From NCBI GenBank assembly GCA_027315455.1, contig DAHUXZ010000002.1, positions 1 through 35,535 on the forward strand: a DNA stretch of 35,535 nt, in the 5' to 3' direction. The notes below the pieces were generated by a model. It did no database searches. It was not told the DNA's origin and saw only the letters and a list, made by a program, of their open reading frames with translations. Source of the stretch: Thermoplasmata archaeon. Lineage in GTDB: Archaea; Thermoplasmatota; Thermoplasmata; Lutacidiplasmatales; UBA184. Below, piece by piece: positions 10,270 to 32,411 of this stretch (position 1 is the stretch's first letter; each line of letters starts with the position of its first letter). A program made the position numbers and the translations under genes.

Positions 10270-10310
10270 GGCTCCCGACCCGTTCCGGTCTTTGAGACTT
10301 CACTGCAAAG

Positions 10311-10318: not shown

Positions 10319-10445
10319 CGGGGGTCTCGTCCCCCCGCCCCGTCCGGGGGTCGCACGCCCTCGCGCCGGCCGATCGGCCCCCTGGGGCCGCGGGCGGTCG
10401 CGGGGGGGTCGCCCGAAGACGGGTCGAGAGCGGAGGCAAGCAACG

Positions 10446-11561: not shown

Positions 11562-11565
11562 GCGG

Positions 11566-12504: not shown

Positions 12505-13215
12505 CTACGGACGGGCGGCGTCCGCGGGGGGCTCCGGGCCCCAGCCGAGCGTGCGCAGGTGCGCGTCGATCGACGCGATGCGCGCGGCCCCGGGCCGTTC
12601 CCGTGCCATCCCGGTCTCGAAGTGCGCGATCATCTCGTCCAGGTTGCCGATGGAGATCAGGTTGACCGTGCCCGGCGGGGTATGGCGGTCCGGGCTCGTC
12701 TCGCTGAGCGGATAACCGAACTTCTCGACGACCCCGGCCGAGGCGGAGTTGCCCCGGAGGACGTAGCCCCCGCCCCGCCGCAGGCCGAGACCCCGGGCAC
12801 AGCGCACCTGCGTCACGGCGAGGAGGCTGCCGATCCCCTGGCCACGCCGCCCCTCGCTGACGAGGTAGCCGAACTTCGCCCAGGCGGCCTGGCCCGGCTC
12901 GACCACGAAGCGGACGGTGCCGTAGCCGATCGGCCGGTCGTCATCCGGGCCCGTCACCACGACGACATAGGCCGCCCGGGAGGGGAGGTGGCGCAGCCAG
13001 AACCGCACGTACGGGGTCGTGCCGACCATCCAGAGGAAGATCGGGACGAGCCGGACGGGGTCGAACGGGAACGGGTGGTAGAACGACCGGGCCTGGGGCG
13101 ATTGCCCGCGGTAGATCTGGACGAGGGCGCGCACGTCGCGCAGTCGCGCCCGTCGCAGGCGGATCCGCGGGGTCTCGGGCACGCCGGCCGGGGGGACCAC
13201 CAAGGCGGCCGTCAT
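12505..13215 (-). CDS. GNAT-family N-acetyltransferase
   Basis: 236 residues from ATG 13215, whose ATGA overlaps the stop of the upstream GT4 gene by 4 bases, indicating translational coupling. The frame is open further upstream but only inside the GT4 gene. The acetyl-CoA loop is RRGQGIGS (123-130), preceded by the beta4 strand AKFGYLVS; GYGTVRFVV forms the preceding strand. It is the last gene of a minus-strand operon for glycan assembly, so acetylation of an amino sugar is a reasonable guess, perhaps on the product of the nearby DegT aminotransferase. A protein or small-molecule acceptor cannot be excluded. Confidence 0.85.
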   Translation of the reverse strand: MTAALVVPPAGVPETPRIRLRRARLRDVRALVQIYRGQSPQARSFYHPFPFDPVRLVPIFLWMVGTTPYVRFWLRHLPSRAAYVVVVTGPDDDRPIGYGTVRFVVEPGQAAWAKFGYLVSEGRRGQGIGSLLAVTQVRCARGLGLRRGGGYVLRGNSASAGVVEKFGYPLSETSPDRHTPPGTVNLISIGNLDEMIAHFETGMARERPGAARIASIDAHLRTLGWGPEPPADAARP

Positions 13216-14372: not shown

Positions 14373-14375
14373 CGT

Positions 14376-15995: not shown

Positions 15996-16008
15996 GGCCC
16001 CCGTGCGC

Positions 16009-17457
16009 TCAGTGGAGGCGCGTACCTACATGAGCCGGCAGGTCGTCAACCGCTTCCGGACCGTCCGGCTCTCCCGGTTCCGCGCCCGCGCCGTCCGGCA
16101 GGAGCGCGGGGCCGGCGCGCACGGCGGGGCCGCCCGACCAGACGGTGGTCACGGTCCCGGCCGAGTTCGCCCGGATGAAGGCGAGCTCCTTGCCGTCGCG
16201 GGAGGAGAGCACGTTGGCGACGAGGATCTGGACCGAGCGCAGCGGCGCCGGTCGCCCCGAGTCCAGCTCGAGCCGGTAGCCGCCGGAGATCCCGCTGGGG
16301 CGGTCGAGCGGGGCGACGCCGGTGGCCGAGCTCCACCCGGCGGGGAACGGGCCCCCGCCGAGATTGACGACCCGCGCGGTGCGGGGCAGCCGGACGACGG
16401 CGGAGGGGCGCTCGGGCCCGGCCCCGGCCACCAGGGGAGGCAGCACCGCGACCGCGCGCCCGCCCATCCCCGGCGTTTCCAGCGGCACCTGCTCGATCGA
16501 CGCCTTCCCTTCGCGGAGCTGGAGGACGACGTTGGCTCCCGGTCGGATGAGCCGGAAGCGCCGCACGAGCGTCTCGGCGTCGCGTCGGCGGGAGCCGTCC
16601 GCGACCACGAGGAGCTCACGCGTCTCGTCCATCAGGAAGAGGGAGAGCAGGCTGCGAACGACCGAGCCGGTCCGCCGCGGGAGGGTGCCCACGCTCGGAC
16701 GGCGCCCGAAGCGCAGGACGGTGAGGAGGATGCGAACGCCATCGCGCGCCGCCTGGAGCTTCGCCACGCCGACGCGCTCGCGGTAGGGGATCGGGATCTG
16801 GGTGATCTGCATCCCCGCCCGGAACGCCTTCGCGAACAGCTCGGCCTCGATCTCGAACCCGTTCGTCTCGAGGGCCAGCCGCTGGGCCATCTCGACGTGC
16901 ACGCCCCAGAAGCCGCTGCAGACGTCGAGGAACGGGAGACCGGCGAACTGGTTCGCCGCGTAGTTGAGCGCGCTGTTGCCGACCCGGTGGACGAGGTCCC
17001 GGGCCGCGCTCGTGGGCTTGAACACCGGCTGCCGGACCCCGACCACGAGGTCGCTGCCGGAGTCGAGGAGGCTCATGAGGGCCGGCACGAGCGACGTGGG
17101 GTAGGTGCAGTCCGCGTCCATGACGACCGCGAACCGGACCCCGCGGGACCTCAGCCAGGCGAGCGCCTCACGGATCGCCGCCCCCTTCCCCCGGGAGCGC
17201 TGGTGGAAGATCGGCACACCGGCACTCTTCGCCACCTCGACCGTCCCATCCGTCGAGCCGCCGTCGACGACCAGGAGGCGATAGGTCCAGCCCTCGGCCC
17301 GCATCGCGGCCGTCGGCATCTCCTTGAGCGTGCGGGCCAGGCCTTCGCGCTCGTTCAGGGTCGGGAGGACCACCGCGAATTCGACGCCTTCAAACGCCTC
17401 CGAGTCCTCCAGGGAGACGTGGCGCGAAGCGGATGCGGGGGACGTGGGATGTTCCAT
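16009..17457 (-). CDS. GT2-family glycosyltransferase with an unassigned C-terminal domain
   Basis: 482 residues. The first 250 are a GT-A domain like dolichyl-phosphate sugar synthases: VVLPTLNEREG (29-39), LLVVDGGSTDGT (61-72), RGKGAAIREAL, and the metal motif MDADCTYP (113-120, Asp114 and Asp116). It probably transfers a sugar from a nucleotide donor to dolichyl or polyprenyl phosphate. Residues about 250-310 carry helices, and about 310-482 form a beta-rich domain not typical of GT2, with no recognised motif and a Pro/Gly/Asp-rich tail. It is the first gene of the operon running to 12505, with a TATATA box about 59 bases upstream. Confidence 0.9.
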   Translation of the reverse strand: MEHPTSPASASRHVSLEDSEAFEGVEFAVVLPTLNEREGLARTLKEMPTAAMRAEGWTYRLLVVDGGSTDGTVEVAKSAGVPIFHQRSRGKGAAIREALAWLRSRGVRFAVVMDADCTYPTSLVPALMSLLDSGSDLVVGVRQPVFKPTSAARDLVHRVGNSALNYAANQFAGLPFLDVCSGFWGVHVEMAQRLALETNGFEIEAELFAKAFRAGMQITQIPIPYRERVGVAKLQAARDGVRILLTVLRFGRRPSVGTLPRRTGSVVRSLLSLFLMDETRELLVVADGSRRRDAETLVRRFRLIRPGANVVLQLREGKASIEQVPLETPGMGGRAVAVLPPLVAGAGPERPSAVVRLPRTARVVNLGGGPFPAGWSSATGVAPLDRPSGISGGYRLELDSGRPAPLRSVQILVANVLSSRDGKELAFIRANSAGTVTTVWSGGPAVRAGPALLPDGAGAEPGEPDGPEAVDDLPAHVGTRLH

Positions 17458-19616: not shown

Positions 19617-21227
19617 TCAGGCGGAGTCGATCAGCAGGACGCCCTGGGGCTGGACGAGCCACTGGGCCGGAAGCATCCCGGGGGCGAACTCCGTGACCGT
19701 CGGGAGGTTCGTCGAGGGGTCCCAGTACCACACCGTCGTGTTGCCGGTGTCGGGGAACGTCGAGGCGTTCAGGACGACGGAGACCTCGCTGAAGGGGTTC
19801 GCGTCGGCGACGAGGAGCGAGGCGCGCGAGCCGTTCGTCGTCTCGACCGCGTAGGCCTGGCCCGGCGATCCGGTGATCGATACGTTGTGGACGCTCCCCA
19901 GCGTCAGGTTCTCGAAGAAGGTCGAGTAGAGGTAGTAGATCGGGTTCGGGGTCGCCCCCGCGACCAGGGTCGGCCACAGGGTGAAGTAGGTCACCATCGG
20001 GACCTGGTCGCGGAGGGCGAGGGTGAGCCCCGCCGCGATGTAGGGGACCTCGGGATAGCTCCCGACATAGCTCGAGAACGTGCCTCCGATGGCGCTGTTG
20101 TACTCGCCGACCCAGAGCGGGATGCGGCAGCGGCAGGCGGTGTCGATCGCCGACTGGGCGGCCGCGAAGCCGTTGGGGAAGAGGCCCGGGTTGGCCAGCG
20201 TCGCGAAGAAGTCCGTGAGGCTCCCCGAGGTGGTGCCGTAGCCGCCCGGGTACGGGTGGTAGGCCACGGCCGAGATGTTCGGCCCGTCGACCTCCGCGAC
20301 CGGCGCGATCCAGGTCGTCGCCTCCCAGAGGGTCCCTCCGGCCGACTGGATGCCGATGAACCGGGCGCTCGGGTCGTAGGCGCGCATCGCCTTGATGTAG
20401 GTCTGGACCTCGCGGGCGTACTCAAGCGGGGTCACGGTAAAGTTGTCGGTGGTCCGCCAGCTCGTCCAGGGCTTGCCCCAGTGGACCCAGTTCTGGGGCT
20501 CGTTGCCGATCGACCAGTAGTCGGGGTGGAATCCGAGCGTCCCCTCGATGTACCGCATGGTCGTGACGGCGAGCCGGGGGTCGTTGATCTCCCCCGGCAC
20601 GCTGATCATCGCGTGGCCGTGCACCTTCTGCACGAACGAGATGAACGCGGAGATGTTGTCCGGTCCCACGGGCGAGCCCTGCCCGGAGTCGTCGTAGACG
20701 ATGCCCGTGCTGACGTTGGTGTACTCCCCTTCGGGTCCCCACCGGAAGTAGGTGAACGGGGTGTTCTGGATGAGCCCGACGGTGGTCGGGGACTCGAGGT
20801 AGATCGATTGGGAACTGAGGGCGAAGAACATCGGGGTGAGGTTCCCCTTGGCCGGAGCGATGCGCAGCGTCGAGTTGAGCGGGGCGGAGCCGTTGCCCGA
20901 GGAGTTGCCGGTCGAGTTGCCCGTGCCGCCCGAGCCTCCCCCGGAGGAGTTCCCCGACGAATTGCCCCCCGACCCGCCGCCGGTGCCGTTGCCCGCGGCC
21001 CCACCGGTCGAGTTGCTGGTGGCGTTCGCGGTGGAGTTGGAGCCCCCGCTCCCCGGAGGGACATCGGCATGGTGGGGGAGACCCGGGGCCGTGGTCCCCG
21101 CGTTCGGGCCGGTCGGACCGATCGAGGGCACGAACTCTGTGACCAGCACCGCGGCGCTGCAGAGGAGGAGGACGATCCCTCCAATCGCCAGGTCATCCGC
21201 GATGCGCTCCGAGAACGGGCGACGCAT
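19617..21227 (-). CDS. Secreted clan GH-A-like glycoside hydrolase with sequon-rich linker (paralogue 3)
   Basis: 536 residues from ATG 21227. A hydrophobic helix (about 12-34) anchors or exports it. Residues about 58-118 are a Gly/Ser/Asn/Thr linker packed with N-x-S/T sequons, probably heavily glycosylated and holding the enzyme away from the membrane. The catalytic domain has FRWGPEGEY (161-169), GNEPQNW with putative acid/base Glu243, YHPYPGG, and VGEYNSAIGG with putative nucleophile Glu375; the C-terminal beta domain ends in QGVLLIDSA. It closely resembles paralogue 1 at 2823 throughout, except for the linker. The start is supported by a TATA box with leaderless-like spacing; the open frame to 21653 is discarded because it passes through that promoter. 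Confidence 0.87.
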   Translation of the reverse strand: MRRPFSERIADDLAIGGIVLLLCSAAVLVTEFVPSIGPTGPNAGTTAPGLPHHADVPPGSGGSNSTANATSNSTGGAAGNGTGGGSGGNSSGNSSGGGSGGTGNSTGNSSGNGSAPLNSTLRIAPAKGNLTPMFFALSSQSIYLESPTTVGLIQNTPFTYFRWGPEGEYTNVSTGIVYDDSGQGSPVGPDNISAFISFVQKVHGHAMISVPGEINDPRLAVTTMRYIEGTLGFHPDYWSIGNEPQNWVHWGKPWTSWRTTDNFTVTPLEYAREVQTYIKAMRAYDPSARFIGIQSAGGTLWEATTWIAPVAEVDGPNISAVAYHPYPGGYGTTSGSLTDFFATLANPGLFPNGFAAAQSAIDTACRCRIPLWVGEYNSAIGGTFSSYVGSYPEVPYIAAGLTLALRDQVPMVTYFTLWPTLVAGATPNPIYYLYSTFFENLTLGSVHNVSITGSPGQAYAVETTNGSRASLLVADANPFSEVSVVLNASTFPDTGNTTVWYWDPSTNLPTVTEFAPGMLPAQWLVQPQGVLLIDSA

Positions 21228-21255
21228 CAGTGACGAGCATTGATGCGCGTAGGTG

Positions 21256-21265
21256 TGTATTATAG
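21256..21265 (-). promoter_or_regulatory. TATA box for glycoside hydrolase paralogue 3
   Basis: The minus strand reads CTATAATACA, centred about 33 bases upstream of ATG 21227, leaving a leader of only a few bases. It is one of the best TATA boxes in the window and fixes the start of the gene. Confidence 0.6.
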
Positions 21266-21381
21266 CTGTGGGGCGGACGGAACGGGGGCACCGTCGCGGC
21301 CTCTCATTCGAGGGGCGTCCGCGACGCGAGGAAACTAATAGGCGGGCGGCCCTGCCGCCCTCTCGGGACGGAGCAGCGCGC

Positions 21382-21807
21382 ATGGCCCCACCCGTTTCGG
21401 ACATCGAGATCCTCGGCTTCGACCACGTGGACCTTCGGGTCCGCAACCGGGCCAAGGCCCGCCGCTTCTTCGTCGAGCAGCTCGGCCTGGACGTCGTCGG
21501 CGAAGGCGACGACCACACCTTCCTCCTCTTCGGCGACCAGGTCCTCGGCCTGCGGGATGCGGCCAAGGGCGCCCGCGCGGACGGGGTCGACCATCTGGCC
21601 CTGCGGGTCGGCTCCTGGACCGGGCTGCGTAACCGCGTCCGGCGCGCCCGCATCGAGGTGACGGGCGAGAAGGAGCGGGACGATTCGCGCTCGCTCTACC
21701 TCAAGGGACCCGAGGGGCTGAAGGTCGAGCTCGTCTGGAGGCCCGACCCGCACCGGCATCCGGCGCACCCGACCCCGGGGCCGGCGGCCCGCGACCGGAT
21801 CCGGTAG
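21382..21807 (+). CDS. VOC-family (glyoxalase/dioxygenase superfamily) protein
   Basis: 141 residues from ATG 21382; the upstream extension is not protein-like and includes a TATA-like AAACTAATAGG (about 21332-21342). Two beta-alpha-beta-beta-beta halves are visible: FDHVDLRVRN...ARRFFVEQLGLDVV and VDHLALRVGSW...GLKVELVWRP. Potential metal ligands are the His in FDHVD, the His in VDHLA and the Glu in KVELVW. This small superfamily covers glyoxalase I, methylmalonyl-CoA epimerase, extradiol dioxygenases and resistance proteins; the motifs do not settle which. It is convergent with the aminotransferase gene, 28 bases away. Confidence 0.82.
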   Translation: MAPPVSDIEILGFDHVDLRVRNRAKARRFFVEQLGLDVVGEGDDHTFLLFGDQVLGLRDAAKGARADGVDHLALRVGSWTGLRNRVRRARIEVTGEKERDDSRSLYLKGPEGLKVELVWRPDPHRHPAHPTPGPAARDRIR

Positions 21808-22871: not shown

Positions 22872-23103
22872 GCCGTTTCCGGTCGTGGACGACCGTCCAC
22901 GTGCGGGGCTTTCGGGGTGGAGAGGACTGGCCGCTGGCTCAGCCCCGGCCCCCGGTGCCCCCCCGGCGTCCACCGCGGGGTATTTGCGTGCCGGGGGGTA
23001 TCCCCAAGGCGAGGCTTCTGCTGTGGTCACCCGCGCGGCGCGTCGGCGGTCCCGGACCCCGCGCCGGCGGAGCGGCCGGGGCGGGCGGCACCGGACCGCC
23101 GAC

Positions 23104-23799
23104 GTGCGGCTCGTGGAGGTCGAGGTCCCCATCGAGACCGGCGGTCACTGGACCCACGACGTCACGACCCGCTGGAACGTCGGCATGCGCTTCCGGGTCT
23201 GTCGGCCGCTTACGGGCCCCTCCGATCGGATGCTCCAGGTCGTCGAGCTCACCGGGGCGCCCGGCGACCTCGGCCTGATCGAGCGCTTCCTGAGGCACCA
23301 CGACGGGGTCGATGCGCTGACCGTCCTCGCCCAGTCCCCGTCCCGGAGGTACCTGCGGGTCGTCGGCCCGATGCCGGAGGCCTGCCGTCGCGTCTTCGAC
23401 TCCGGTGCGCTGTGCGCCTCCTGCCGTTTCCTCGCGACCGAGACGGGGTCCGACGGGCGCTGGTCGCTGGTGGTGCCCCAGTCCCCCCGCCTGATCCGGG
23501 CGCTCGCCCGACCCGAAGCGCCGGGCAACCGGAGGTCGGACGGTCTCCTCCGGATGCGTCGGTTCGTCCCGCCGCGGACCCTCACTCCCCGTCAGGCGGC
23601 GACGATCGAGGCCGCGTTCCGACTCGGCTTCTACGACTTCCCGCGGCGGACGAACCTGCAGGAGATCGCGCGGATCCTTCACGTCAGCCGCGCGACCGCC
23701 CTCGAGCATCTTCGGCGGGCGGAAGCGAAGATGCTCGGTGCGGAGCTCTCCGCGGGGTCGCGGCGCTCCACCCTGCCGCTCGTTCCGGCCCGCGGCTGA
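23104..23799 (+). CDS. HTH-10 (bacterio-opsin-activator type) archaeal transcription regulator
   Basis: 231 residues if GTG 23104 is the start; GTG 23023 in frame would add 27 mostly Arg residues, and the frame is open to 22885. The N-terminal part (VRLVEVEVPIETGGHW...) is the ligand or partner domain seen in Bat-like regulators. The C-terminus (LTPRQAATIEAAFRLGFYDFPRRTNLQEIARILHVSRATALEHLRRAEAKML) is a classic HTH-10 DNA-binding domain, found almost only in archaea. Cys at about 102, 133, 144 and 147 could sense metal or redox state. It lies 1.5 kb upstream of the benzoyl-CoA operon, separated by two genes, so it is a candidate but unproven regulator of it. Confidence 0.88.
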   Translation: MRLVEVEVPIETGGHWTHDVTTRWNVGMRFRVCRPLTGPSDRMLQVVELTGAPGDLGLIERFLRHHDGVDALTVLAQSPSRRYLRVVGPMPEACRRVFDSGALCASCRFLATETGSDGRWSLVVPQSPRLIRALARPEAPGNRRSDGLLRMRRFVPPRTLTPRQAATIEAAFRLGFYDFPRRTNLQEIARILHVSRATALEHLRRAEAKMLGAELSAGSRRSTLPLVPARG

Positions 23800-23827: not shown

Positions 23828-24601
23828 TCAGGAGCGGCGTCGCCGCGCGAAACGCTCCCCGTCCCGGTTCGGGCCCTGGCCGCGGAGGGGGTCGGCCAGA
23901 TCCTGCTCGAGGCGCAGGGCGTCCGACAATGGAAGATCGAGACCACGCCGGACGGCCTCGCGGGCCCGGCGGACCGCCTCGGCCGGAAGCTCGGCGATCC
24001 GCTGGGCCATCGCGATGGCCTCCGCCTCGAGCCGACGGCGAGGGACGACCCGGTTCACGAGCCCGATGGCATGCGCCCGCGCCGCATCGATCGTTCCCGC
24101 CGTCAGGATCATCTCGAGGGCGAGGCCCGGCGGGATCGTGCGGGGCAGACGCTGGGTTCCTCCCTGGCCGGGAATGATCCCCCAGCGGACCTCGGGAAGG
24201 CCGAGCACGGCATCCGGGCTCGCGATGCGGATGTCGCAGGCGAGCGCCAGCTCGAGCCCCGCCCCGAGACAGTAGCCGTGGATCGCCGCGATCACCGGCT
24301 TTCCCACGTCGAAGTTCCGGGTCAGGCCCCCGAGCCCCGGAGACCGCTGCCAGCGCTCCCGCCGCCCACCCGGCCGGTCCTCTTGGTAGAACTCCTCGAG
24401 CCGCTTGAGGTCGATCCCCGCCGAGAACGCCTTCGGGCCGGCCCCGCGCAGGACCGCGGCGTGTAGCCGGCCGTCGTCCCGGTAGCGCTCCCAGGCGAGG
24501 AGCAGGTCGCGGTCGGTCTCGGGGTCGATGGCGTTGAGGGCAGCGGGGCGGTTCAGGGTGATGACAGCGACGGCGCCCTCGGTTCGGAAGTCGATTGGCA
24601 C
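23828..24601 (-). CDS. Enoyl-CoA hydratase/isomerase (crotonase family)
   Basis: 257 residues from GTG 24601; an alternative GTG at 24679 adds 26 residues with no family character and would leave only 29 bases to the divergent hemerythrin gene. The fold signatures are VAVITLNRPAALNAI (11-25), KAFSAGIDLKRL (oxyanion hole), GYCLGAGLELALACD with Glu117, and LPEVRWGIIPGQGGTQRLPR with Glu137. Both catalytic Glu of true hydratases are present, so it should hydrate 2-enoyl-CoA thioesters, as in beta-oxidation. Near the benzoyl-CoA operon it could act on pimelyl-CoA-level intermediates, though this is inference. The tail is Arg-rich. Confidence 0.88.
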   Translation of the reverse strand: MPIDFRTEGAVAVITLNRPAALNAIDPETDRDLLLAWERYRDDGRLHAAVLRGAGPKAFSAGIDLKRLEEFYQEDRPGGRRERWQRSPGLGGLTRNFDVGKPVIAAIHGYCLGAGLELALACDIRIASPDAVLGLPEVRWGIIPGQGGTQRLPRTIPPGLALEMILTAGTIDAARAHAIGLVNRVVPRRRLEAEAIAMAQRIAELPAEAVRRAREAVRRGLDLPLSDALRLEQDLADPLRGQGPNRDGERFARRRRS

Positions 24602-24708
24602 GCGGTCCCCAGCGCGACGGGGTTCAAGGCCATTTCCGACGCGCCGGGCGTACGTGATGAGGGAGCCGGACTTCGGCACCCGGTCCTCAGGATCGGTACC
24701 GGAGCCCG

Positions 24709-25221
24709 ATGCTACCGCGCGACCCCCTATCCGAGCTCGTGGAAGATCACCGTCGGTTCCTCGTCCGCCTCTCCGAGTTTCACGGGGAGGTCCGGCGGCT
24801 CGACGGGGCGGCGGCCGGCGCGCCGGCCCGTGTCGGTGCCGTACGGTCGTTCGCTCATTTCCTCGCCCGGGACGTCGACGCCATCCACGGCCGGAAGGAG
24901 GAGGCCGGTCTCTTCCCGGCCCTCGAGCCGTACCTCCCGGCCGAGGGCGGGCCGGTCGGGCTCTTCATCGCCGAGCACGAGGAGCTACGGACGCACGAGC
25001 GCGAGCTCACCCGGTCGGCCGACCGGTTGGAGCGCGACCCCGAGGCGGTGGAGACGGTGCGAGCCCTCGGGGCGACCGAGGGGGCGGTCCGGGGTCTGCT
25101 GACGGACCACATCGCCAGGGAGGACACGGTCCTGTTCCCGATGGCCCGCGAGCTTCTCTCGGAGCGGGACCTGGCCGCCATCGCCGAGGTCTTCGCGGCG
25201 ATCGAGCGGGAGACCGGCTGA
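24709..25221 (+). CDS. Hemerythrin-like HHE-domain protein
   Basis: 170 residues in an all-helical layout. The di-iron ligand pattern is visible: His14 in VEDHRRF, His60 with Glu64/65 in IHGRKEEAGLFP, His90 in IAEHEELR, and the last helix HIAREDTVLFP with His and Glu. HHE proteins bind O2, NO or iron, or help repair iron-sulfur clusters. Lying 114 bases upstream of an operon for an oxygen-sensitive iron-sulfur reductase and in the same orientation, it could sense or scavenge oxygen, which is inference. The start ATG 24709 shares the divergent gap with the enoyl-CoA hydratase. Confidence 0.87.
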   Translation: MLPRDPLSELVEDHRRFLVRLSEFHGEVRRLDGAAAGAPARVGAVRSFAHFLARDVDAIHGRKEEAGLFPALEPYLPAEGGPVGLFIAEHEELRTHERELTRSADRLERDPEAVETVRALGATEGAVRGLLTDHIAREDTVLFPMARELLSERDLAAIAEVFAAIERETG

Positions 25222-25335: not shown

Positions 25336-26487
25336 ATGCGTTCCCGTATCCGAGTCGCCGCCGCCCCCGCCCCCGTGCCCACCGAGACCGAGGACAACCT
25401 AGCGGCCGCGCCGGCCGAAGCCCTCGGCCTGAAGGACGTGCGCTACGAGAGGTCCGAGGGCATCGCCCGCATCACCATCGACCGGCCCCGGGCCTACAAC
25501 GCCTACTCGACCGCCACGCTCAAGGAGATCACCCGCGCGATGGAGGACGCCTCCCGCGACGACGAGGTGGGAGTGGTCATCCTGACGGGCGGGGGTACCC
25601 GCGCCTTCTGCACCGGCGGCGACGTCAAGGAGTACGCCGACCGCTTTCTGAAGCGACCGCACGACTATTGGAAGTACATGGCGGTCTTCCGTGGGACCGT
25701 CGAGTCGATCCTCCGCTGTGGAAAGCCGGTCATCGCGCGGCTCAACGGCATCGCCGTGGGTGGAGGGAACGAGCTGCACCTCGCCTGCGACCTCTCCGTC
25801 GCTGCCTCGCACATCTACATCGGCCAGGTCGGGGTCGGCGTCGGGTCCGTCGCGGCCGGCGGGGCGACCCAGTGGCTGCCGATCACCATCGGGGACCGTC
25901 GGGCCCGGTCCATGCTGTTCCTCAACGAGCGGATCTCCCCGGCCCAGGCGCTCGACTGGGGGCTGGTCTCCGCGACGGCCCCGTCCGTCGTGAAGGACGG
26001 GGAGTTCCTCGCCGCCCCGACGGCCGAGGAGGTCGCGTGGGCGCAGAAGGAGGAGCGAGGCTATCGCATCGACCTCAAGCGGCTCGACGAGACCGTCGAC
26101 ACGCTCGCCCGGCGGCTCCTCGGGATGTTCCCGGAGTGCCTGCGGTACACGAAGGCCCAGACGAACATCTGGAAGGAATGGGCCTGGAACCAGAGCGTCG
26201 GCCACGCGCAGGAGTGGCTCGCCCTCCACTTCGCGACCGTCGAACCGTACGAGGGCATGAACGCGTTCGTCGACAAGCGGCCGGCCCGGGTCGCCGAGCT
26301 CCGCGCGCGCCTCGCGGGTCGGGACGATTCGGACTTCCTGCATGGCCCGCCGCTCGCCTCGTGCGGGGTCTGCGGGGAGGCGGGCCTTCCGACCAAGTTC
26401 CGCTACTGTGGCCGGTGCGGGGCGCTGCTGAACGAGGGGCGGGCCCCGCCGTCGGCGGCTCCCGGGGGGAAGGCCCGCGGCGCATGA
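25336..26487 (+). CDS. oah: 6-oxocyclohex-1-ene-1-carbonyl-CoA hydrolase (ring opening), with C-terminal zinc ribbon
   Basis: 383 residues from ATG 25336. It is a crotonase of the Oah/BamA/BzdY type, which hydrates 6-oxocyclohexene-carbonyl-CoA and opens the ring to 3-hydroxypimelyl-CoA. Family signatures are RAFCTGGDVKEYADRFL (89-105) with DYWKYMAVF, GGGNELHLACD (142-152), VGVGSVAAGGATQWLPITIGDRRA (about 167-190), which replaces the second catalytic Glu of hydratases, and MFPECLRYTK (264-273). Residues 343-361 add a zinc ribbon (Cys343, 346, 358, 361), not part of the classical enzyme. It is the first gene of the operon and overlaps the reductase subunit gene by 4 bases. The remaining Glu146 and the length match the family; confidence in the function is high. 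Confidence 0.9.
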   Translation: MRSRIRVAAAPAPVPTETEDNLAAAPAEALGLKDVRYERSEGIARITIDRPRAYNAYSTATLKEITRAMEDASRDDEVGVVILTGGGTRAFCTGGDVKEYADRFLKRPHDYWKYMAVFRGTVESILRCGKPVIARLNGIAVGGGNELHLACDLSVAASHIYIGQVGVGVGSVAAGGATQWLPITIGDRRARSMLFLNERISPAQALDWGLVSATAPSVVKDGEFLAAPTAEEVAWAQKEERGYRIDLKRLDETVDTLARRLLGMFPECLRYTKAQTNIWKEWAWNQSVGHAQEWLALHFATVEPYEGMNAFVDKRPARVAELRARLAGRDDSDFLHGPPLASCGVCGEAGLPTKFRYCGRCGALLNEGRAPPSAAPGGKARGA

Positions 26488-27758
26488 GCGGACCCACGAC
26501 CCCCGAGTTCCTCGCCCGGGCCCGCGACGAGCAGCGGGATATGGTCGAGCAGTACTACCGCGACCTCGCTTCCGCCGGCGGCCCGAAGCGGCCGGTCGCC
26601 TACATGCTGGTCGGCGGAAACCTGACCGAGATCGTCCGTGCCTTCGGCTACGAGGTCGTCTTCCCGGAGATCGTCGCCCTCAACTGCGCCATCAAGCACG
26701 TCTCGCTCCCCAACATCCTGAACGCCGAGAGCCAGGGCTACGGCCTCGACGTCTGCGGTTACGTCAAGAACGACCTCGGGCTCCAGGAGATGGGCGGGGA
26801 GACCCCGTTCGGGAAGATCCCCAAGCCCGACCTCCTGGTCTGCAGCTTCTCCGGCTGCTATGTCTACGTCAAGTGGTGGGAGGCGCTCGCGGAGCGCTAC
26901 GGCGTCCCGCTCTTCGTCTTCGACGTGCCGTACATGCGCGACCGGGCCCCGCAGGCCGAGGACCTCGCCTACGTGGTGACGCAGCTCGAGGAGTTCATCG
27001 CCTTCCTGGAGAAGACGACGGGACGCTCGTTCGACCGGGCCGAGCTCACCCGGGTCCTTGCCCAATCCCGCCGCGCCGAGGAGGGCTGGGTCCGCTACCT
27101 GCGCTCGGGGACTCACCGCCCCTCACCGATCGAGGCGTACTTCGAGGCCGTCTTCTACATGTTCCCGATCAACGTACTGCGCGGGACGGCCACGGCGGCC
27201 GACTTCTACGAAACGGTCAACGCCGAGGTGGACGAGCGCATCCGTTTGGGCATGTACCCCGTCCCCGAGGAGAAGTACCGGGTCGTCGTCGAGGGGGTCC
27301 CGCCGTATCCCAGCTACCGTACCTTCTGGGATTTCTTCCGCAACTGGGGGGCCGTCTCGGTCGCCGCGACGTATCCGAAGGTCGGCGGGCTGTTCGACCG
27401 GGGGTTCCTGCACGACCCCGCCCGTCCCCTCGAGAGCATCGCCGAGTACTCCCTCGGCGCCTACGTGAACCAGTCCTGGCCGCTCCGGCGGGAGCTGATC
27501 GCGGACTACGTGCGGGAGTACAGCGCCGACGCGGTCGTCATCCACGGGATCAAGTCCTGCCGCTCGTTCACGGCGGGGCAGGGCGATCTCCGCGACTGGC
27601 TGATCCACGAGAAGGGGGTCCCCACCCTCTACCTCGAGTCCGACCACGAGGACCCGCGCTACTTCGCCCCGGCGCAGATCAAGAACCGCATGGACGCGTT
27701 CTTCGAATCGCTCGAGCAGCGCGGGGCCACGGCGTCCGCCGCGGGGGTGGCTCCGTGA
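26484..27758 (+). CDS. bzdO: Benzoyl-CoA reductase, BzdO/BcrB-like iron-sulfur subunit
   Basis: 424 residues of the 2-hydroxyacyl-CoA dehydratase/benzoyl-CoA reductase (HgdB/BcrB-BcrC) family. Candidate [4Fe-4S] ligands are Cys68 (ALNCAIKH), Cys91 (LDVCGYVKN), Cys120 and Cys125 (VCSFSGC); Cys359 (IKSCRSF) is also family-typical. With its partner (29362-30597) it forms the substrate-binding module that puts two electrons into the aromatic ring. NLTEIVRAFGYEVVFPEIVALN at 46-67 and NILNAESQGYGLDVCGYVKNDLG match the benzoyl-CoA branch. ATGA overlaps with both flanking genes indicate coupled translation. A 2-hydroxyacyl-CoA dehydratase role is the alternative, disfavoured by the two ATPase genes and the Dch/Had/Oah neighbours. 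Confidence 0.88.
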   Translation: MSGPTTPEFLARARDEQRDMVEQYYRDLASAGGPKRPVAYMLVGGNLTEIVRAFGYEVVFPEIVALNCAIKHVSLPNILNAESQGYGLDVCGYVKNDLGLQEMGGETPFGKIPKPDLLVCSFSGCYVYVKWWEALAERYGVPLFVFDVPYMRDRAPQAEDLAYVVTQLEEFIAFLEKTTGRSFDRAELTRVLAQSRRAEEGWVRYLRSGTHRPSPIEAYFEAVFYMFPINVLRGTATAADFYETVNAEVDERIRLGMYPVPEEKYRVVVEGVPPYPSYRTFWDFFRNWGAVSVAATYPKVGGLFDRGFLHDPARPLESIAEYSLGAYVNQSWPLRRELIADYVREYSADAVVIHGIKSCRSFTAGQGDLRDWLIHEKGVPTLYLESDHEDPRYFAPAQIKNRMDAFFESLEQRGATASAAGVAP

Positions 27759-28543
27759 CGATCGTGGCCGGGATCGACATCGGGTCAACGACGGCGAAGT
27801 GCGTCCTCCTGGACGGCACGTCCGTCGTGGGGCGGTCGCTCCACCCTGTCGGCGTCGAGCTCGTCAAGGACGCCGAGCAGGCGCTCGAGAAGGCGCTCGA
27901 GGCGGCTCACCTCACGCGGGAGGAGGTCGCCTTCGTCACCGGCACCGGCTACGGCCGCTTCAAGGTGAGCTTCGGCCAGCTCGTGGTCACCGAGATCGGT
28001 TGCCACGCCAAGGGGGCCCATTTTCTCTTCCCGGAGACCCGCCTGGTCCTCGACATCGGCGGCCAGGACACGAAGGCGATCCGGATCAACGGCAAGGGCG
28101 AGGTCGTCGACTTCGCGATGAACGACAAGTGCGCGGCAGGGACGGGCCGCTTCCTGGACGTCTGCGCCGGGGCGTTGGGCTTCGATGTGGCCGAGCTCGG
28201 CCCGGCGGCGCTCCAGGCCCGTCACCCGGTCAAGGTGACGAGCACCTGCACGGTCTTCGCCGAGTCCGAGGTGACCTCCTACCTCTCGCGCGGCAAGGAG
28301 CCGCGCGACATCGTGGCGGGGCTGCACGAAAGCATCGTCAGCCGGTCCATGTCCCTCCTCCAGCGGGTCGGGATCGAGCCGCAGCTCACGTTCACGGGCG
28401 GCGTCTCGCGCAACGAGGGGATGGTCCGCACCCTCGTCCGCCGGACGCAACTGCCGGTCAACGTGAGCCCTCTCTCGCAGTACATCGGCGCGATCGGGGC
28501 GGCGCTCTTCGGGACGGAGCGGGTCGCCGGGAGGTCCGCATGA
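27755..28543 (+). CDS. bzdP: Benzoyl-CoA reductase, BzdP-like ATPase/activator subunit
   Basis: 262 residues, GTG start at 27755 inside the previous stop (GTGA overlap). It is a BadF/BadG/BcrA/BcrD (ASKHA) ATPase: phosphate-1 loop GIDIGSTTAKCV (6-17), phosphate-2 loop LDIGGQDTKAI (99-109), and GGVSRNEGMV near the C-terminus for adenosine. Cys126 (KCAAGTGRF) and Cys165 (STCTVFAES) are in the positions that hold the bridging [4Fe-4S] cluster in the dimer. It hydrolyses ATP to drive low-potential electron transfer to the reductase module. At 262 residues it is close to the ~290-residue Bzd-type subunits and lacks the long extension of Thauera BcrA. It is cytoplasmic and expected to be very oxygen-sensitive. 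Confidence 0.9.
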   Translation: MTIVAGIDIGSTTAKCVLLDGTSVVGRSLHPVGVELVKDAEQALEKALEAAHLTREEVAFVTGTGYGRFKVSFGQLVVTEIGCHAKGAHFLFPETRLVLDIGGQDTKAIRINGKGEVVDFAMNDKCAAGTGRFLDVCAGALGFDVAELGPAALQARHPVKVTSTCTVFAESEVTSYLSRGKEPRDIVAGLHESIVSRSMSLLQRVGIEPQLTFTGGVSRNEGMVRTLVRRTQLPVNVSPLSQYIGAIGAALFGTERVAGRSA

Positions 28544-29358
28544 TCACCTGCGGGCTCGACCTCGGTTCCGGGATCACGAAGGGGGTGCTCCTCGAGGACG
28601 GGCACCGGGTCCTTGCGATGACGAACGCCCCGACCCGCGGCGCGCCGACGGAGACCGGCCGGCGGGTCCTCGAGTCGCTGGTCGAGGAGGCGAACCTCCT
28701 CCCCGGTGACGTCCAGTACCTGTGCACCACCGGCTTCGCGCGCTACGCCTATCCGGAACGCGACCTCCAGGTGAGCGACCTCACGGCGTCGGCACGGGGC
28801 GCGGTCTTCCTCTTCCCCGGGACGCGCCACATCGTGGACATCGGCAGCCAGTCCTCCCGGGCGATCTCGACGTCGGACACGGGCCGGGTCCTGCGCTTCA
28901 AGATGAACGAAAAATGCGCGGCCGGCGCGGGACGGTTCATCGACCGGTGCTCGAAATACCTTCAGGTGCCACAGCCCGAGCTCTCCGCGAAGGCGCTCCA
29001 GGCCGAGCGCCCCAAGATGGTCTCGAGCGTCTGCGCGGTGCTCGCCGAGACGGAGATCATCAACAACGTCGCCGAGGGGGTCCCGCTTCCCGACATCCTG
29101 ATGGGGGTCTTCCTCTCGCTCGCGAACCGCACCCACGCGCTGATGCGCTACGTGGGCGTCGTCCCCGAGGTCACGCTGGTCGGCGGCCTCGTCCATAGCG
29201 GGGCGATGGTCCGTGCGCTCGAGGAGACCGCGAAGACCCACATCAACGTCGACCCCCGCGCGCACTACGCCGCGGCGCTCGGCAGCGCGATCCTCGGCCA
29301 CGCCCGCCGGCAGCGCCTCGCTGCACCAACGACCACGGCCGCCTCCGCCGCGGGGTGA
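28540..29358 (+). CDS. bzdQ: Benzoyl-CoA reductase, BzdQ-like ATPase/activator subunit
   Basis: 272 residues, the second BadF/BadG-type ATPase, overlapping the first by an ATGA. Motifs are GLDLGSGITKGV (5-16), VDIGSQSSRAI (99-109), KCAAGAGRFID (125-135), SVCAVLAETEIINNVAEG (163-180) and GGLVHSG near the C-terminus. Cluster ligands Cys126 and Cys165 have the same numbers as in the first ATPase, but the sequences differ clearly, especially in the phosphate-2 loop (Gln/Ser-Ser in place of Gln-Asp-Thr), so the two form a heterodimer rather than a recent duplication. Two different ATPase genes next to two different iron-sulfur subunit genes is the hallmark of class I benzoyl-CoA reductase; 2-hydroxyacyl-CoA dehydratases use one homodimeric activator. 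Confidence 0.9.
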   Translation: MITCGLDLGSGITKGVLLEDGHRVLAMTNAPTRGAPTETGRRVLESLVEEANLLPGDVQYLCTTGFARYAYPERDLQVSDLTASARGAVFLFPGTRHIVDIGSQSSRAISTSDTGRVLRFKMNEKCAAGAGRFIDRCSKYLQVPQPELSAKALQAERPKMVSSVCAVLAETEIINNVAEGVPLPDILMGVFLSLANRTHALMRYVGVVPEVTLVGGLVHSGAMVRALEETAKTHINVDPRAHYAAALGSAILGHARRQRLAAPTTTAASAAG

Positions 29359-29361
29359 GCC

Positions 29362-30597
29362 ATGGCGACCCCACTTCCGATGTACCCGCCCACCGACGAA
29401 ACGTCCGCGCCGCGTCTCGAGCTGGCGGAGGATCTGCGGGAGTTCCGCGACGCGGCCAACCTCGAAGCGGTCGTCAAGCTCGCCCGCGAGGTCGTCGAGG
29501 ACCCGAGCTACCCGACGGTCCGCGCCTGGGCGCTCCATGGCGGGAAGGCCGTCGGCTGCTTTCCCGTGTACACCCCCCAGGAGCTGATCCACTCCTTCGG
29601 GCTGCTGCCCGTGTCGCTGCACGGGGGCGGGGAGCACCTCGAGATCAGCCACGCCGATGCGGCGCTGGGGTCGTTCCTCTGCTCGATCAGCAAGTCGACC
29701 CTCGAGCTCGCGCTGACCCGGCAGCTCGCGCCGTTCCAGGGCTTTGTCTTCCCCTACATCTGTGATGTCAGCCGAAACCTCGAGGGCCTGTTCCCCCGCC
29801 TCCTGCCCGGCCCCGAGACCCACATGCTCCACCTTCCCCAGAACTTCCACACGCGGGCGGCCGTGCCGTTCCTGACCGCGGAGTACCGCCGCCTCGTGGT
29901 GAAGCTCGAGCGCCTGAGCGGACGCCCCTACGACCCGGACGCCCTCGCCGCATCGATGCGCCTGTTCAACACCCATCGGGCGCGCATCGCCGAGCTGAAC
30001 GCGCTCAAGCGCACCTCGCCCGCGAAGGTCTCGCTGATCGAGTCGTATCTCCTGCGTCGTCTCGGCGGCCTCCTCCCCCGGGAGCTCCACCTGCAGCTGC
30101 TCGACCGCTTTCTTCCGGAGCTCGAACGCCGCCCGGCTCGGCCGAAGGACGCCGTCCGGGTCTTGCTGGTCGGCTCCTTCTGCGAGCAGCCGACCCTCGA
30201 CCTGGTCGACCTGCTCGAGCAGGTCGGTTGCTACGCGGTCGACGACGAGTTCCTGCAGATCCACCGCTGGCACGGCCCGATCGAGCCGGGGGACGACCCG
30301 CTCGCGAGCCTCGCCGCGGCGTACGTGAACGCCCCGATCGATATCGGGGTGCGCGCGACGCCGACCACCAAGGGGGAGGCGATCCTCGAGCGCGTGCGGG
30401 TCGCCGATGCCCAGGCGGTGCTGTTCCTGACCGCGAAGTTCTGTGAGCCGGCCCTCGAGGACGTCGTCCTCTACCGGCGCGCGCTCGATGCCCAGAAGAT
30501 CCCGTATCTCCACCTCGAGTACGAGGAGCGTTCGACCGCCTACGAGCAGTCCCGGCTCCAGCTCGAGACGTTCGTCGAGTCGATCCTGTTCAACTGA
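29362..30597 (+). CDS. bzdN: Benzoyl-CoA reductase, BzdN/BcrC-like iron-sulfur subunit
   Basis: 411 residues of the HgdA/B-BcrB/C family. Candidate cluster ligands are Cys66 (VGCFPVYTPQEL), Cys107 (FLCSISKS) and Cys134 (PYICDVSRN); GSFCEQPTLDLVDLLEQVGCY and TAKFCEPALED follow in the C-terminal domain. The motif order G-C-F-P-V-Y-x-P-x-E-L then Y-I-C-D is typical of BcrC/BzdN, whereas its partner (26484-27758) lacks it. Together they bind benzoyl-CoA. The gene starts 3 bases after the second ATPase. No 2[4Fe-4S] ferredoxin gene (bzdM type) is visible nearby, so electrons must come from a ferredoxin encoded elsewhere. Subunit naming is by motif resemblance, not alignment. Confidence 0.87.
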   Translation: MATPLPMYPPTDETSAPRLELAEDLREFRDAANLEAVVKLAREVVEDPSYPTVRAWALHGGKAVGCFPVYTPQELIHSFGLLPVSLHGGGEHLEISHADAALGSFLCSISKSTLELALTRQLAPFQGFVFPYICDVSRNLEGLFPRLLPGPETHMLHLPQNFHTRAAVPFLTAEYRRLVVKLERLSGRPYDPDALAASMRLFNTHRARIAELNALKRTSPAKVSLIESYLLRRLGGLLPRELHLQLLDRFLPELERRPARPKDAVRVLLVGSFCEQPTLDLVDLLEQVGCYAVDDEFLQIHRWHGPIEPGDDPLASLAAAYVNAPIDIGVRATPTTKGEAILERVRVADAQAVLFLTAKFCEPALEDVVLYRRALDAQKIPYLHLEYEERSTAYEQSRLQLETFVESILFN

Positions 30598-30606
30598 GGA
30601 CCTGCC

Positions 30607-31377
30607 ATGACGAACCCTCCCCCCATCACCCTCGCGCACGCGGACGGGGTCGTCACGGTGCGGTGGGACCGGCCTCCGGTCCACGTCTTTGATCGGCCCC
30701 TGATGGAGGAACTGACCGCGGTCCTCCGTTCGCCCGAGGTTCGTCAGGCGCACGTCGTCCGCCTGGAAGGGGCGCACCACCGCTGGAGCGCCGGCCTCGA
30801 CGTGAAGGACCATCGGGCGGGGTCGTTGCCGCCCATGCTGCGCGCGTTCCGGTCCCTGCTCGAAGCCCTCTGGGAGGTCCCGGCCCCGACGGTGGCCCTG
30901 GTCGAGGGACCGTGCCTCGGAGGAGGGCTTGAGCTCCTCGGTGCGTGCGACCTCGCCTACGCCGCGTCGAGCGCCACCTTCGGCCAGCCCGAGGTTCGCC
31001 TCGGCGTCCTCCCTCCCTTCGCGATCGCCCAGGCGCCCGCCGAGATCGGGCTCAAGTCGGCGGCGGAGCTGCTTCTCTTGGGCGAGACCATGCCCGCCGC
31101 CCGTGCCGCCGAGCTCGGCCTGGTGAACCGCGTCCTTCCCGACGAGGCGGTCGCCGGCGAGGTCGAGCGCGCCGTCGCGACGCTTCGCCGCTCCCGTCGG
31201 GAGACGCTGGTTCTGCTGAAGCGGAGCCTGCACGAGGTGGTCGCGTTCCCCGACCGTGCCCTGGCCCGTGCGGAAGCGGTCTACGTCCAAGAGCTCATGG
31301 CGCTCCCCCGCGCCGAGGAGGGCCTCGACGCGTTCCTCGAAAAGCGTCCGCCGCGCTGGCCGGAGAGCCCCGCATGA
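30607..31377 (+). CDS. dch: Cyclohexa-1,5-diene-1-carbonyl-CoA hydratase
   Basis: 256 residues, the usual length of DchA/BzdW-type hydratases. This crotonase-fold enzyme adds water to the diene product of the reductase to give 6-hydroxycyclohex-1-ene-1-carbonyl-CoA. RWSAGLDVKDHRAG (59-72) supplies the oxyanion hole, with the V-x-D-H signature of Dch. GPCLGGGLELLGACD carries Glu109 and FGQPEVRLGVLPPFA carries Glu129, so both catalytic Glu are present. A GAGGA ribosome-binding site precedes ATG 30607 after a 9-base gap. The gene overlaps the dehydrogenase gene by an ATGA. A generic enoyl-CoA hydratase is the alternative; the context argues strongly for Dch. Confidence 0.87.
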   Translation: MTNPPPITLAHADGVVTVRWDRPPVHVFDRPLMEELTAVLRSPEVRQAHVVRLEGAHHRWSAGLDVKDHRAGSLPPMLRAFRSLLEALWEVPAPTVALVEGPCLGGGLELLGACDLAYAASSATFGQPEVRLGVLPPFAIAQAPAEIGLKSAAELLLLGETMPAARAAELGLVNRVLPDEAVAGEVERAVATLRRSRRETLVLLKRSLHEVVAFPDRALARAEAVYVQELMALPRAEEGLDAFLEKRPPRWPESPA

Positions 31378-32411
31378 CCGGCCCCACCATGCGTGCGGCC
31401 GTCCTCTCCGCACCCGGTGCCCCCCTCCGTATCGAGCAGGTCCCCCGGCCGGTGCCGGGAGCCGACGAGGCCCTCGTTCGGGTGCGCGCCTGCGGGTTCT
31501 GCCACACGGACCTTCACTATCTCGACCACGGGGTGCCGACCGCGAAGGCTCCCCCCCTCATCCTCGGTCACGAGATCTCCGGCACCGTGGAGGTGCTCGG
31601 AAGCGCCGCGACGGCGCCGGCGATCGGCACCACCGTCCTCGTCCCCGCGGTGCTGCCCTGCGGCACCTGCAGCCTCTGTCGGACCGGCCGGGAGAACATC
31701 TGCCAGCGCAGCCGCATGGTCGGAAACCACGTGGACGGCGGGTTCGCGGAGTACGTGGCCATCCCGGCCCGGGACCTGATCCCCCTCCCCCCCGAGATCG
31801 ACCCGGTCCTCGGATGCGTGATCGCCGACGCGCTCACCACCCCGTACCACGCCGTCGTGCAGCGGGCCGAGGTCCGTGCGGGCGAGCGGGTCGTGGTCAT
31901 CGGCTGCGGCGGGGTCGGCATCAACGTCGTGCAGTTCGCGGCCGCGTCGGGAGCCGATGTGACCGCGGTCGACCTCAACGACGCGAAGCTCGAGCTGGCC
32001 CGGCGCCTGGGCGCCTCGGCGACGGTGAACCCGTCCAAGGTCGCCGACGTGCCCCGCGAGCTCAAGTCCCGCTGGGGCGACCACGCGGACGCCGTCTTCG
32101 AGGTCGTGGGCTCCCCCGCGACCATCGCCCTCGCGTTTTCGGCCCTGAGACGGGGGGGCCGCCTCTGCCTGGTCGGCTACTCCCGGACGCCCGCAGAGCT
32201 CCCCGCGCACCGGGTCATGTTCCTGGAGCAGACCGTCCTTGGTTCCCTGGGATGCCGGCCGGCCGACTACCCACGGGTCGTCAACCTCGTGCGGCAAGGC
32301 CGCATCGACCTCGCATCGATCGTCACCTCCCGTCTCCCGCTCGAGCGGATCGGGGAGGCCGCCGACCTTCTCCGTCGTGGGGAGGGACTGCGCTCGGTCA
32401 TCGTGCCCTGA
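31374..32411 (+). CDS. had: 6-hydroxycyclohex-1-ene-1-carbonyl-CoA dehydrogenase (Zn-dependent MDR)
   Basis: 345 residues of the zinc alcohol dehydrogenase family. Catalytic-zinc ligands are Cys43 (GFCHTDLH) and His66 (LGHE), and structural-zinc ligands are Cys96, 99, 102 and 110 in PCGTCSLCRTGRENIC. The Rossmann motif is GCGGVGINV near 177-185. VLVPAVLPCGTC together with RMVGNHVDGGFAEYVAIPARDL is the pattern of Had/BzdX. It oxidises 6-hydroxycyclohexene-carbonyl-CoA with NAD to the 6-oxo compound that Oah opens. It is the last gene of the operon, overlapping dch by 4 bases, with a strong hairpin 15 bases after its stop. Without the context it would be called only an alcohol dehydrogenase. 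Confidence 0.88.
   Translation: MTGPTMRAAVLSAPGAPLRIEQVPRPVPGADEALVRVRACGFCHTDLHYLDHGVPTAKAPPLILGHEISGTVEVLGSAATAPAIGTTVLVPAVLPCGTCSLCRTGRENICQRSRMVGNHVDGGFAEYVAIPARDLIPLPPEIDPVLGCVIADALTTPYHAVVQRAEVRAGERVVVIGCGGVGINVVQFAAASGADVTAVDLNDAKLELARRLGASATVNPSKVADVPRELKSRWGDHADAVFEVVGSPATIALAFSALRRGGRLCLVGYSRTPAELPAHRVMFLEQTVLGSLGCRPADYPRVVNLVRQGRIDLASIVTSRLPLERIGEAADLLRRGEGLRSVIVP

What the first reader, a model, noticed from the sequence alone, without database searches (positions are those of the whole stretch)
25336..32411. Complete upper benzoyl-CoA degradation operon in an archaeon
Seven co-directional genes with overlaps or gaps of 9 bases or less encode, by visible motifs, ring-opening hydrolase (Oah), four class I benzoyl-CoA reductase subunits, dienoyl-CoA hydratase (Dch) and hydroxyenoyl-CoA dehydrogenase (Had). 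This covers benzoyl-CoA to 3-hydroxypimelyl-CoA with no step missing. Class I reductase pathways are best known from bacteria such as Thauera, Azoarcus and Rhodopseudomonas; Ferroglobus placidus is a known archaeal benzoate degrader. An operon of this kind in a Thermoplasmatota-like genome would extend anaerobic aromatic degradation to a further archaeal lineage. The archaeal assignment and the pathway calls rest on motif recognition only.
Basis: partly seen in the sequence, partly recalled or inferred. Interest (0 to 1): 0.9.

Follow-up and report, generated by a model that had tools for sequence, protein, structure and literature searches.

The report
Archaeal anaerobic benzoyl-CoA degradation operon
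Seven linked genes in a Thermoplasmata archaeon appear to encode an anaerobic pathway that breaks open aromatic rings, of a divergent type whose ring-opening enzyme carries an added zinc-ribbon-like tail that the canonical enzyme lacks.

Summary
In detail: seven same-strand genes, 25336-32411, junctions of 9 bases or less, encode Oah-, BcrB-, BcrA-, BcrD-, BcrC-, Dch- and Had-like proteins. Gene order recurs in relatives and the genes are under purifying selection.

No protein passes an equivalog cut-off. The reductase forms a separate clade. The Oah has a C-terminal zinc-ribbon motif and groups with, but outside, canonical Oah. Around 93 distinct BCR-type loci, zinc-ribbon Oah (53) and canonical Oah (9) were never found together, and each kept its own Had type (36 and 5, no mixed pair). 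My searches of the held papers found no description of this form.

Class I bcr genes were already reported in Thermoplasmata MAGs, so the phylum claim is not new. No dedicated benzoate-CoA ligase was found; Dch is the weakest call; substrate and activity are inferred. The genome has two COX1 genes beside this presumably oxygen-sensitive pathway.

Verdict: real operon, new variant of a known kind.

The parts
25336..26487 (+). Oah-like ring-opening hydrolase (383 aa), zinc-ribbon type
   Evidence: TIGR03200 200.8 bits over profile 39-225 of 360, best of 71 models, cut-off 464; groups with canonical Oah apart from MenB, 98/93; model mean pLDDT 88
26362..26418 (+). C-terminal zinc-ribbon motif of the Oah, cysteines 343, 346, 358, 361 (zinc binding inferred)
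   Evidence: all four Cys invariant in the 34 sequences of A4; motif absent from the nine distinct canonical Oah; pLDDT 92 and 90 for residue blocks 341-350 and 351-360
26484..27758 (+). class I BCR catalytic subunit BcrB-like (424 aa), active-site [4Fe-4S]
   Evidence: benz_CoA_red_B 341 bits vs HadB 165; best PDB match MbdO; C91, C125, C359, E62 invariant in 13 sequences
27755..28543 (+). ATP-dependent activase subunit BcrA-like (262 aa, GTG start)
   Evidence: PF01869 231 bits; best PDB match MbdQ, 9.4e-83
28540..29358 (+). ATP-dependent activase subunit BcrD-like (272 aa)
   Evidence: PF01869 151 bits; best PDB match MbdP, 9.7e-56
29362..30597 (+). class I BCR catalytic subunit BcrC-like (411 aa)
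   Evidence: benz_CoA_red_C 266 bits vs HadC 160; best PDB match MbdN; C107, C134, C274, C361 invariant in 13 sequences
30607..31377 (+). Dch-like dienoyl-CoA hydratase, crotonase family (256 aa); weakest call
   Evidence: PF00378 141 bits; dienoyl_CoA_hyt 116 vs EchA19 119 bits; position in the operon
31374..32411 (+). Had-like Zn-type alcohol dehydrogenase (345 aa)
   Evidence: dearomat_had 279 bits, best of 26 models, cut-off 339; [quoted passage not shown]
24709..25221 (+). hemerythrin-domain protein just upstream on the same strand; possible oxygen binder or sensor (function inferred)
   Evidence: PF01814; at this place in 6 of 18 relatives with over 2.5 kb upstream
23828..24679 (-). divergent enoyl-CoA hydratase, candidate beta-oxidation enzyme
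   Evidence: PF00378 193 bits; divergent upstream in 14 of 18 relatives
22885..23799 (+). HTH_10 regulator, candidate regulator of the locus
   Evidence: PF04967; upstream in 7 of 18 relatives, one of them distant and in the other orientation

Best explanation
An operon for the upper anaerobic benzoyl-CoA pathway with a class I, ATP-dependent reductase. BcrA and BcrD form the ATP-driven electron activator with a shared [4Fe-4S] cluster. BcrB binds the CoA thioester at an active-site [4Fe-4S] cluster, and BcrC relays electrons through a cluster held by C107, C134, C361 and probably C274. The ring is reduced to a 1,5-dienoyl-CoA, Dch adds water, Had oxidises the alcohol, and the zinc-ribbon Oah hydrates and opens the ring to 3-hydroxypimelyl-CoA or a substituted analogue, which goes to beta-oxidation. 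Shown here: gene content, order, conservation, family placement, cluster cysteines, two Oah types that were never found together. Inferred: activity, benzoyl-CoA as substrate, reaction order, zinc binding, ferredoxin supply by 2-oxoacid:ferredoxin oxidoreductases.
For: BCR models score about 2.1 times (B) and 1.7 times (C) the dehydratase models. Best PDB matches are the four subunits of 3-methylbenzoyl-CoA reductase MbdONQP and a Had structure. BzdO ligands C95, C128, C380 (PMC11971306, passages) align with C91, C125, C359. BcrC has the FCE cysteine C274 shared with MbdN and absent from HadC. The two PF01869 genes of the operon are the only matches in the genome. Order and context recur; relatives of Oah and Had lie within flank of BCR genes in bacteria of several phyla. 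Genome-wide: 2-oxoacid:ferredoxin oxidoreductases, acyl-CoA dehydrogenases, 3-hydroxyacyl-CoA dehydrogenases, thiolases.
Against: No protein passes an equivalog cut-off. Dch is not distinguishable from enoyl-CoA hydratases by model. The BzdO catalytic His131 corresponds to Tyr128 here (Phe in MbdO by the alignment), so the BZD mechanism does not transfer residue by residue. No benzoate-CoA ligase over cut-off among 3 AMP-binding proteins, and the candidate tested (C8) is a family core gene also present in same-genus genomes without the zinc-ribbon Oah. No ferredoxin motif in the window. Two COX1 genes suggest an oxygen-respiring organism, while class I BCRs are oxygen-sensitive (recalled). The trees hold one dehydratase row each, on a long branch, so they do not themselves test dehydratase membership.
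Confidence: 0.78

Rival explanations
1. The same reductive ring-opening chemistry acts on another ring CoA thioester (methyl- or hydroxy-substituted benzoyl-CoA, or a ring acid from amino-acid or terpenoid breakdown), not on benzoyl-CoA.
For: All four reductase subunits have a 3-methylbenzoyl-CoA reductase chain as best PDB match, but that is the only class I enzyme with all four subunits among the hits. Variant Oah and Had go together. No benzoate-CoA ligase over cut-off.
Against: By model score BcrB is nearer to benz_CoA_red_B (341) than two MBR-type relatives are (197, 202). No substituent-specific gene was recognised among the window genes scanned.
Confidence: 0.25
2. A 2-hydroxyacyl-CoA dehydratase operon for amino-acid fermentation, with crotonases and an alcohol dehydrogenase beside it.
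For: Same superfamily; HadB and HadC models match at 165 and 160 bits.
Against: BCR models score 341 and 266; two distinct activase subunits pair with MbdQ and MbdP; BcrC keeps the FCE cysteine that HadC lacks; Oah and Had models are the best for the neighbours; relatives stand next to BCR genes in other phyla.
Confidence: 0.04
3. A decayed or recently acquired, non-functional cluster.
For: Patchy presence: zinc-ribbon Oah in 21 of 41 genomes of the family.
Against: All seven frames are open; dN/dS 0.19-0.45 for the genes compared; cluster cysteines kept.
Confidence: 0.03

Closest known systems
3-methylbenzoyl-CoA reductase MbdONQP (PDB 9g87, 9gai; so named)
   Same: Best PDB match for all four subunits; two different activase subunits; BcrC cysteine set including the FCE cysteine
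   Different: The window proteins form a clade outside the MbdN/MbdO clade; BcrB has Tyr where MbdO has Phe next to the active site
Thauera/Rhodopseudomonas-type BcrABCD with Oah, Dch, Had (NCBIfam TIGR02259-02263, TIGR03189, 03200, 03201; organism names recalled)
   Same: Same set of steps; these are the best or best pathway-specific models for six of seven genes
   Different: All scores below the equivalog cut-offs; Oah has a zinc-ribbon motif and its C-terminal half does not match the model; no Thauera sequence could be put in the trees
BZD-type reductase BzdNOPQ (Aromatoleum sp. CIB, PMC11971306)
   Same: Class I architecture; active-site [4Fe-4S] cysteines; three of six BzdN cysteines
   Different: The three other BzdN [8Fe-9S] cysteines (36, 263, 293) align with non-Cys residues; catalytic His131 is Tyr128; in the BcrC tree BzdN groups with other archaea of the phylum (L056-L060), not with the window
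Class I bcr genes reported in Thermoplasmata MAGs (PMC6472368) and 'Ca. Yaplasmales' (PMC9239135)
   Same: Same phylum; bcr genes, and in the 2019 paper also oah, dch and had in the reported set
   Different: The passages seen mention no operon structure, subtype or zinc ribbon; whether they hold the canonical or the zinc-ribbon form is not known here

Membership tests
class I benzoyl-CoA reductase | two catalytic subunits of the HGD-D/BCR family with active-site [4Fe-4S] cysteines | tested here: met
class I benzoyl-CoA reductase | two different ATP-binding activase subunits with cluster cysteines | tested here: met
   P0003 best PDB match MbdQ, P0004 best MbdP; cysteines in NDKCAAG and STCTVFAE of P0003, NEKCAAG and SVCAVLAE of P0004
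class I benzoyl-CoA reductase | ATP-dependent reduction of benzoyl-CoA to dienoyl-CoA | not testable with these tools
   needs biochemistry
Thauera-type Bcr equivalogs (TIGR02259-02263) | score over curated equivalog cut-off | tested here: not met
   A 217/578, B 341/487, C 266/421, D 162/313 bits; filed as class I BCR, not as these equivalogs
BZD type | BzdN [8Fe-9S] cysteine set and BzdO His131 | tested here: not met
   three of six BzdN cysteines (C36, C263, C293) and His131 not kept
2-hydroxyacyl-CoA dehydratase | HadB/HadC-type subunits with a single-gene activase | tested here: not met
   lower scores than BCR models and two activase genes in the genome
[quoted passage not shown]
   200.8 bits over 187 of 360 positions, cut-off 464; of three canonical relatives L056 (580) and L140 (522) pass, L044 (442) does not
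Oah lineage in the wide sense | common clade with canonical Oah, apart from MenB and enoyl-CoA hydratases | tested here: met
   98/93 support, with a long-branch warning; C268, K280, W284, W294 shared by both Oah types in A3 and not by E. coli MenB in the alignment
Had (TIGR03201) | score over cut-off | tested here: not met
   278.6 vs 338.65, but the best of 26 models and best PDB match
Dch (TIGR03189) | best-scoring, specific model | tested here: inconclusive
   116.4 vs EchA19 118.8 and PRK08139 117.4 bits
complete benzoate degradation | benzoate-CoA ligase | tested here: not met
   3 AMP-binding proteins found in the 94%-complete genome, none over the TIGR02262 cut-off

The most novel reading that the evidence does not exclude
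The zinc-ribbon Oah and its partner Had are an undescribed second form of the ring-opening half of the benzoyl-CoA pathway, found in Thermoplasmata and, by record titles, in at least seven bacterial phyla, which replaces the canonical pair and differs in substrate or in physical coupling to the reductase; in these archaea it serves a class I reductase of a new deep clade, in a genome equipped for oxygen respiration.
Probability: 0.35. Interest if true: 0.68.

Novelty: new variant of a known kind. Interest (0 to 1): 0.5.

Why it matters
Class I benzoyl-CoA reductases make one of the hardest biological reductions and gate anaerobic breakdown of aromatic carbon. A separate archaeal clade of the enzyme, together with an apparently unrecognised zinc-ribbon form of the ring-opening hydrolase shared with bacteria of several phyla, means that annotation by equivalog models (such as the TIGR03200 cut-off) misses part of this pathway. 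It also gives a small, testable gene set with which to ask how an archaeon that carries terminal oxidases uses an oxygen-sensitive enzyme, perhaps with a co-located hemerythrin.

Tried and rejected
2-hydroxyacyl-CoA dehydratase reading: rejected on model scores, activase pair and cysteines. BZD reading: rejected on scores and cysteines. Dedicated benzoate-CoA ligase: the C8 ligase was tested as candidate, but a match is present in 40 of 41 genomes of the family at E<=1e-30 (in at least four, G040, G287, G398, G400, only a distant AMP-binding homologue), including same-genus genomes that lack the zinc-ribbon Oah, so it is not tied to the operon. Plasmid collection for characterised references: only distant hits (BcrC query 24-28% identity; Oah query all under 60%). 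Thauera/Rhodopseudomonas Bcr sequences for the trees could not be obtained, so the window clade is placed against MBR, BZD (BcrC tree only) and HAD references. Rfam scan of the window at gathering thresholds: nothing. Foldseek with the Oah model: the 50 listed matches are crotonase-family folds, MenB among them. The order-level name is not settled: GC about 70% and 1.98 Mb resemble 'Lutacidiplasmatales' (PMC9287336: about 69%, 2.1 Mb), but no named genome was matched.
Full report
OBSERVATION. The seven genes are present at the stated place and strand, with junctions of -4, -4, -4, +3, +9 and -4 bases. The window is bases 1-35535 of a 118 kb contig in a 1.98 Mb, 87-contig genome, 94% complete. 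Relatives with BcrC at 60-75% identity are titled Thermoplasmata archaeon in a species-representative genome collection (one, L062, only 'bacterium').

FAMILY PLACEMENT. NCBIfam: BcrB benz_CoA_red_B 341 bits against HadB 165 and bzdO 113; BcrC benz_CoA_red_C 266 against HadC 160 and bzdN 70; Had dearomat_had 279; Oah dearomat_oah 201. BcrA and BcrD score best with the general activase model, then benz_CoA_red_A (218) and benz_CoA_red_D (162). Dch is unresolved (116 against EchA19 119 and PRK08139 117). No protein reaches an equivalog cut-off. [quoted passage not shown]

RESIDUES. In the BzdNO structure paper (PMC11971306; outline, abstract and passages seen) BzdO holds its cluster with Cys95, 128, 380, with Glu65 and His131 beside it; BzdN holds an [8Fe-9S] cluster with Cys36, 73, 100, 263, 293, 327. 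The window BcrB keeps C91, C125, C359 (aligned) and E62 (its match to Glu65 is inferred from spacing), all invariant in 13 sequences; His131 falls on Tyr128, and MbdO has Phe there. The window BcrC keeps the equivalents of Cys73, 100 and 327 (C107, C134, C361) but not of 36, 263, 293; it has C274 in an FCE motif shared with MbdN and absent from HadC. So it resembles the BCR/MBR form; a double cubane of the BZD kind is not supported.

CONSERVATION. In 20 of 27 window-like archaeal loci all seven genes occur in the same order; the other 7 lack a Dch hit and/or reach a contig end. dN/dS is 0.19-0.45 per gene against four relatives (Dch not found in one). Zinc-ribbon Oah occurs in 21 of 41 sampled genomes of the family (15 of 27 of high quality). 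In a phylum sample a BcrC-model match at E<=1e-20 occurs in 46 of 389 genomes, none over the cut-off; by the trees these include other reductase types.

TWO FORMS OF THE RING-OPENING STEP. The window Oah ends in CxxC-x11-CxxC; the four cysteines are invariant in 34 aligned sequences and the two residue blocks that hold most of it have mean pLDDT 92 and 90. The nine distinct canonical Oah in the survey lack it. Of three canonical ones scanned, L140 and L056 pass the Oah cut-off (522 and 580 bits) and L044 scores 442, whereas three bacterial zinc-ribbon proteins score 191-223. Of 93 distinct loci (108 before removal of duplicates) Oah is zinc-ribbon type in 53 by best query (motif seen in 52; L091 is cut by the contig end), canonical in 9, not found within the flank in 31, and the two were never found in one locus at 140 bits or more (0 of 108). 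Where a Had is also found, zinc-ribbon Oah goes with the window-type Had in 36 and canonical Oah with the canonical Had in 5, with no mixed pair; 21 loci with an Oah had no Had within the flank, and 6 had a Had without an Oah. Reductases with a BcrB hit of 350 bits or more to the window were seen with zinc-ribbon Oah only (35 of 41; 6 had none found); MBR-like ones (150-350 bits) occur with either form (13 and 8; 19 none); the remaining 12 loci have a weaker, partial or missing BcrB hit. The loci came from searches with a window-like BcrC or the BcrC model, so the proportions are biased; the lack of mixing is the informative part. In a maximum-likelihood tree without ribbon columns, zinc-ribbon plus canonical Oah form one group (98/93) apart from MenB; canonical Oah is a clade (100/100) on a long branch; 15 Thermoplasmatota sequences form a clade (100/99) inside a group with 13 bacterial ones (95/80). 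The divergent L048 zinc-ribbon protein falls outside (93/83), so the zinc-ribbon type is not one clade in this tree, though a single origin is not ruled out; the program warns of long branches at the MenB and hydratase ends. Nesting fits transfer from bacteria but does not prove direction.

REDUCTASE TREES. BcrB and BcrC (quick method, SH-aLRT only) both put the window in a mainly Thermoplasmatota clade (28 rows, 100/99 in BcrB; 29 rows, 98 in BcrC), apart from the MBR clade that holds MbdO and MbdN (41 rows, 100/100; 45 rows, 100). In the BcrC tree other archaea of the phylum group with BzdN (6 rows, 100). The single dehydratase row is a long branch and the two BcrC outgroup rows did not form one side, so the roots are unsure. 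Thauera-type BcrABCD could not be included.

GENOME CONTEXT. Divergent enoyl-CoA hydratase upstream in 14 of 18 relatives with over 2.5 kb upstream, hemerythrin in 6, HTH_10 regulator in 7 (25 loci tabulated, 7 with too little upstream); the window has all three. Own-genome searches: 3 AMP-binding proteins, none over the benzoate-CoA ligase cut-off; 6 acyl-CoA dehydrogenase matches; 6 3HCDH_N matches, of which two lie in one frame and two are weak (one of these is the window Had), leaving about three genes; 3 POR_N proteins, of which two pass a general 2-oxoacid oxidoreductase model and one is PorA-like below its cut-off; 8 thiolase matches, one below the cut-off; 2 COX1. How benzoyl-CoA would be made, and how an oxygen-sensitive enzyme coexists with terminal oxidases, is open; facultative life or microoxic niches with hemerythrin protection is speculation.

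PRIOR ART. PMC6472368 (passages): class I bcr genes in 12 MAGs of bacteria and of archaea (Thermoplasmata, Bathyarchaeota), with oah, dch and had also identified. PMC9239135 (passages): bcrABCD in 'Ca. Yaplasmales', there called the first report for Thermoplasmatota. PMC8163825 (passages): all four enzymes in Hermodarchaeota. PMC9287336 (passages) on Lutacidiplasmatales, a possible home of this genome, has no occurrence of aromatic, benzo or bcr as word beginnings in the main text. Searches for Lutacidiplasma with benzoyl-CoA and for the hydrolase name with zinc ribbon found no paper in the held library; other wording or papers not held could carry it.

VERDICT.

Noticed in passing
L036 (G101), L047 (G287), L048 (G040): A second, divergent BCR cluster in the same archaeal family (BcrB 43-45% identical to the window); in L048 it comes with a divergent zinc-ribbon Oah (35%). 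Genome G101 holds both cluster types (L036, L037).
   Followed up: partly
L056, L057, L058, L059, L060: BcrC proteins that group with BzdN in other Thermoplasmatota families; L056 also has a canonical Oah over the curated cut-off (580 bits) within the flank.
   Followed up: partly
L044, L050, L053, L054, L137: MBR-type reductase clusters in archaeal genomes (L044, L050, L053, L054 of the same phylum; L137 titled Euryarchaeota archaeon); all but L053 have canonical Oah and canonical Had within the flank.
   Followed up: partly
7086-17457: Surface-glycan region: two sulfatase-domain proteins, DegT aminotransferase, sugar epimerase, two glycosyltransferases, a polysaccharide-synthesis flippase-type protein.
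   Followed up: no
107-2797, 4249-5793, 5961-7004, 19617-21653 (all -) and 2823-4238 (+): Long frames with coding-like GC at third positions but no Pfam match at 1e-5.
   Followed up: no
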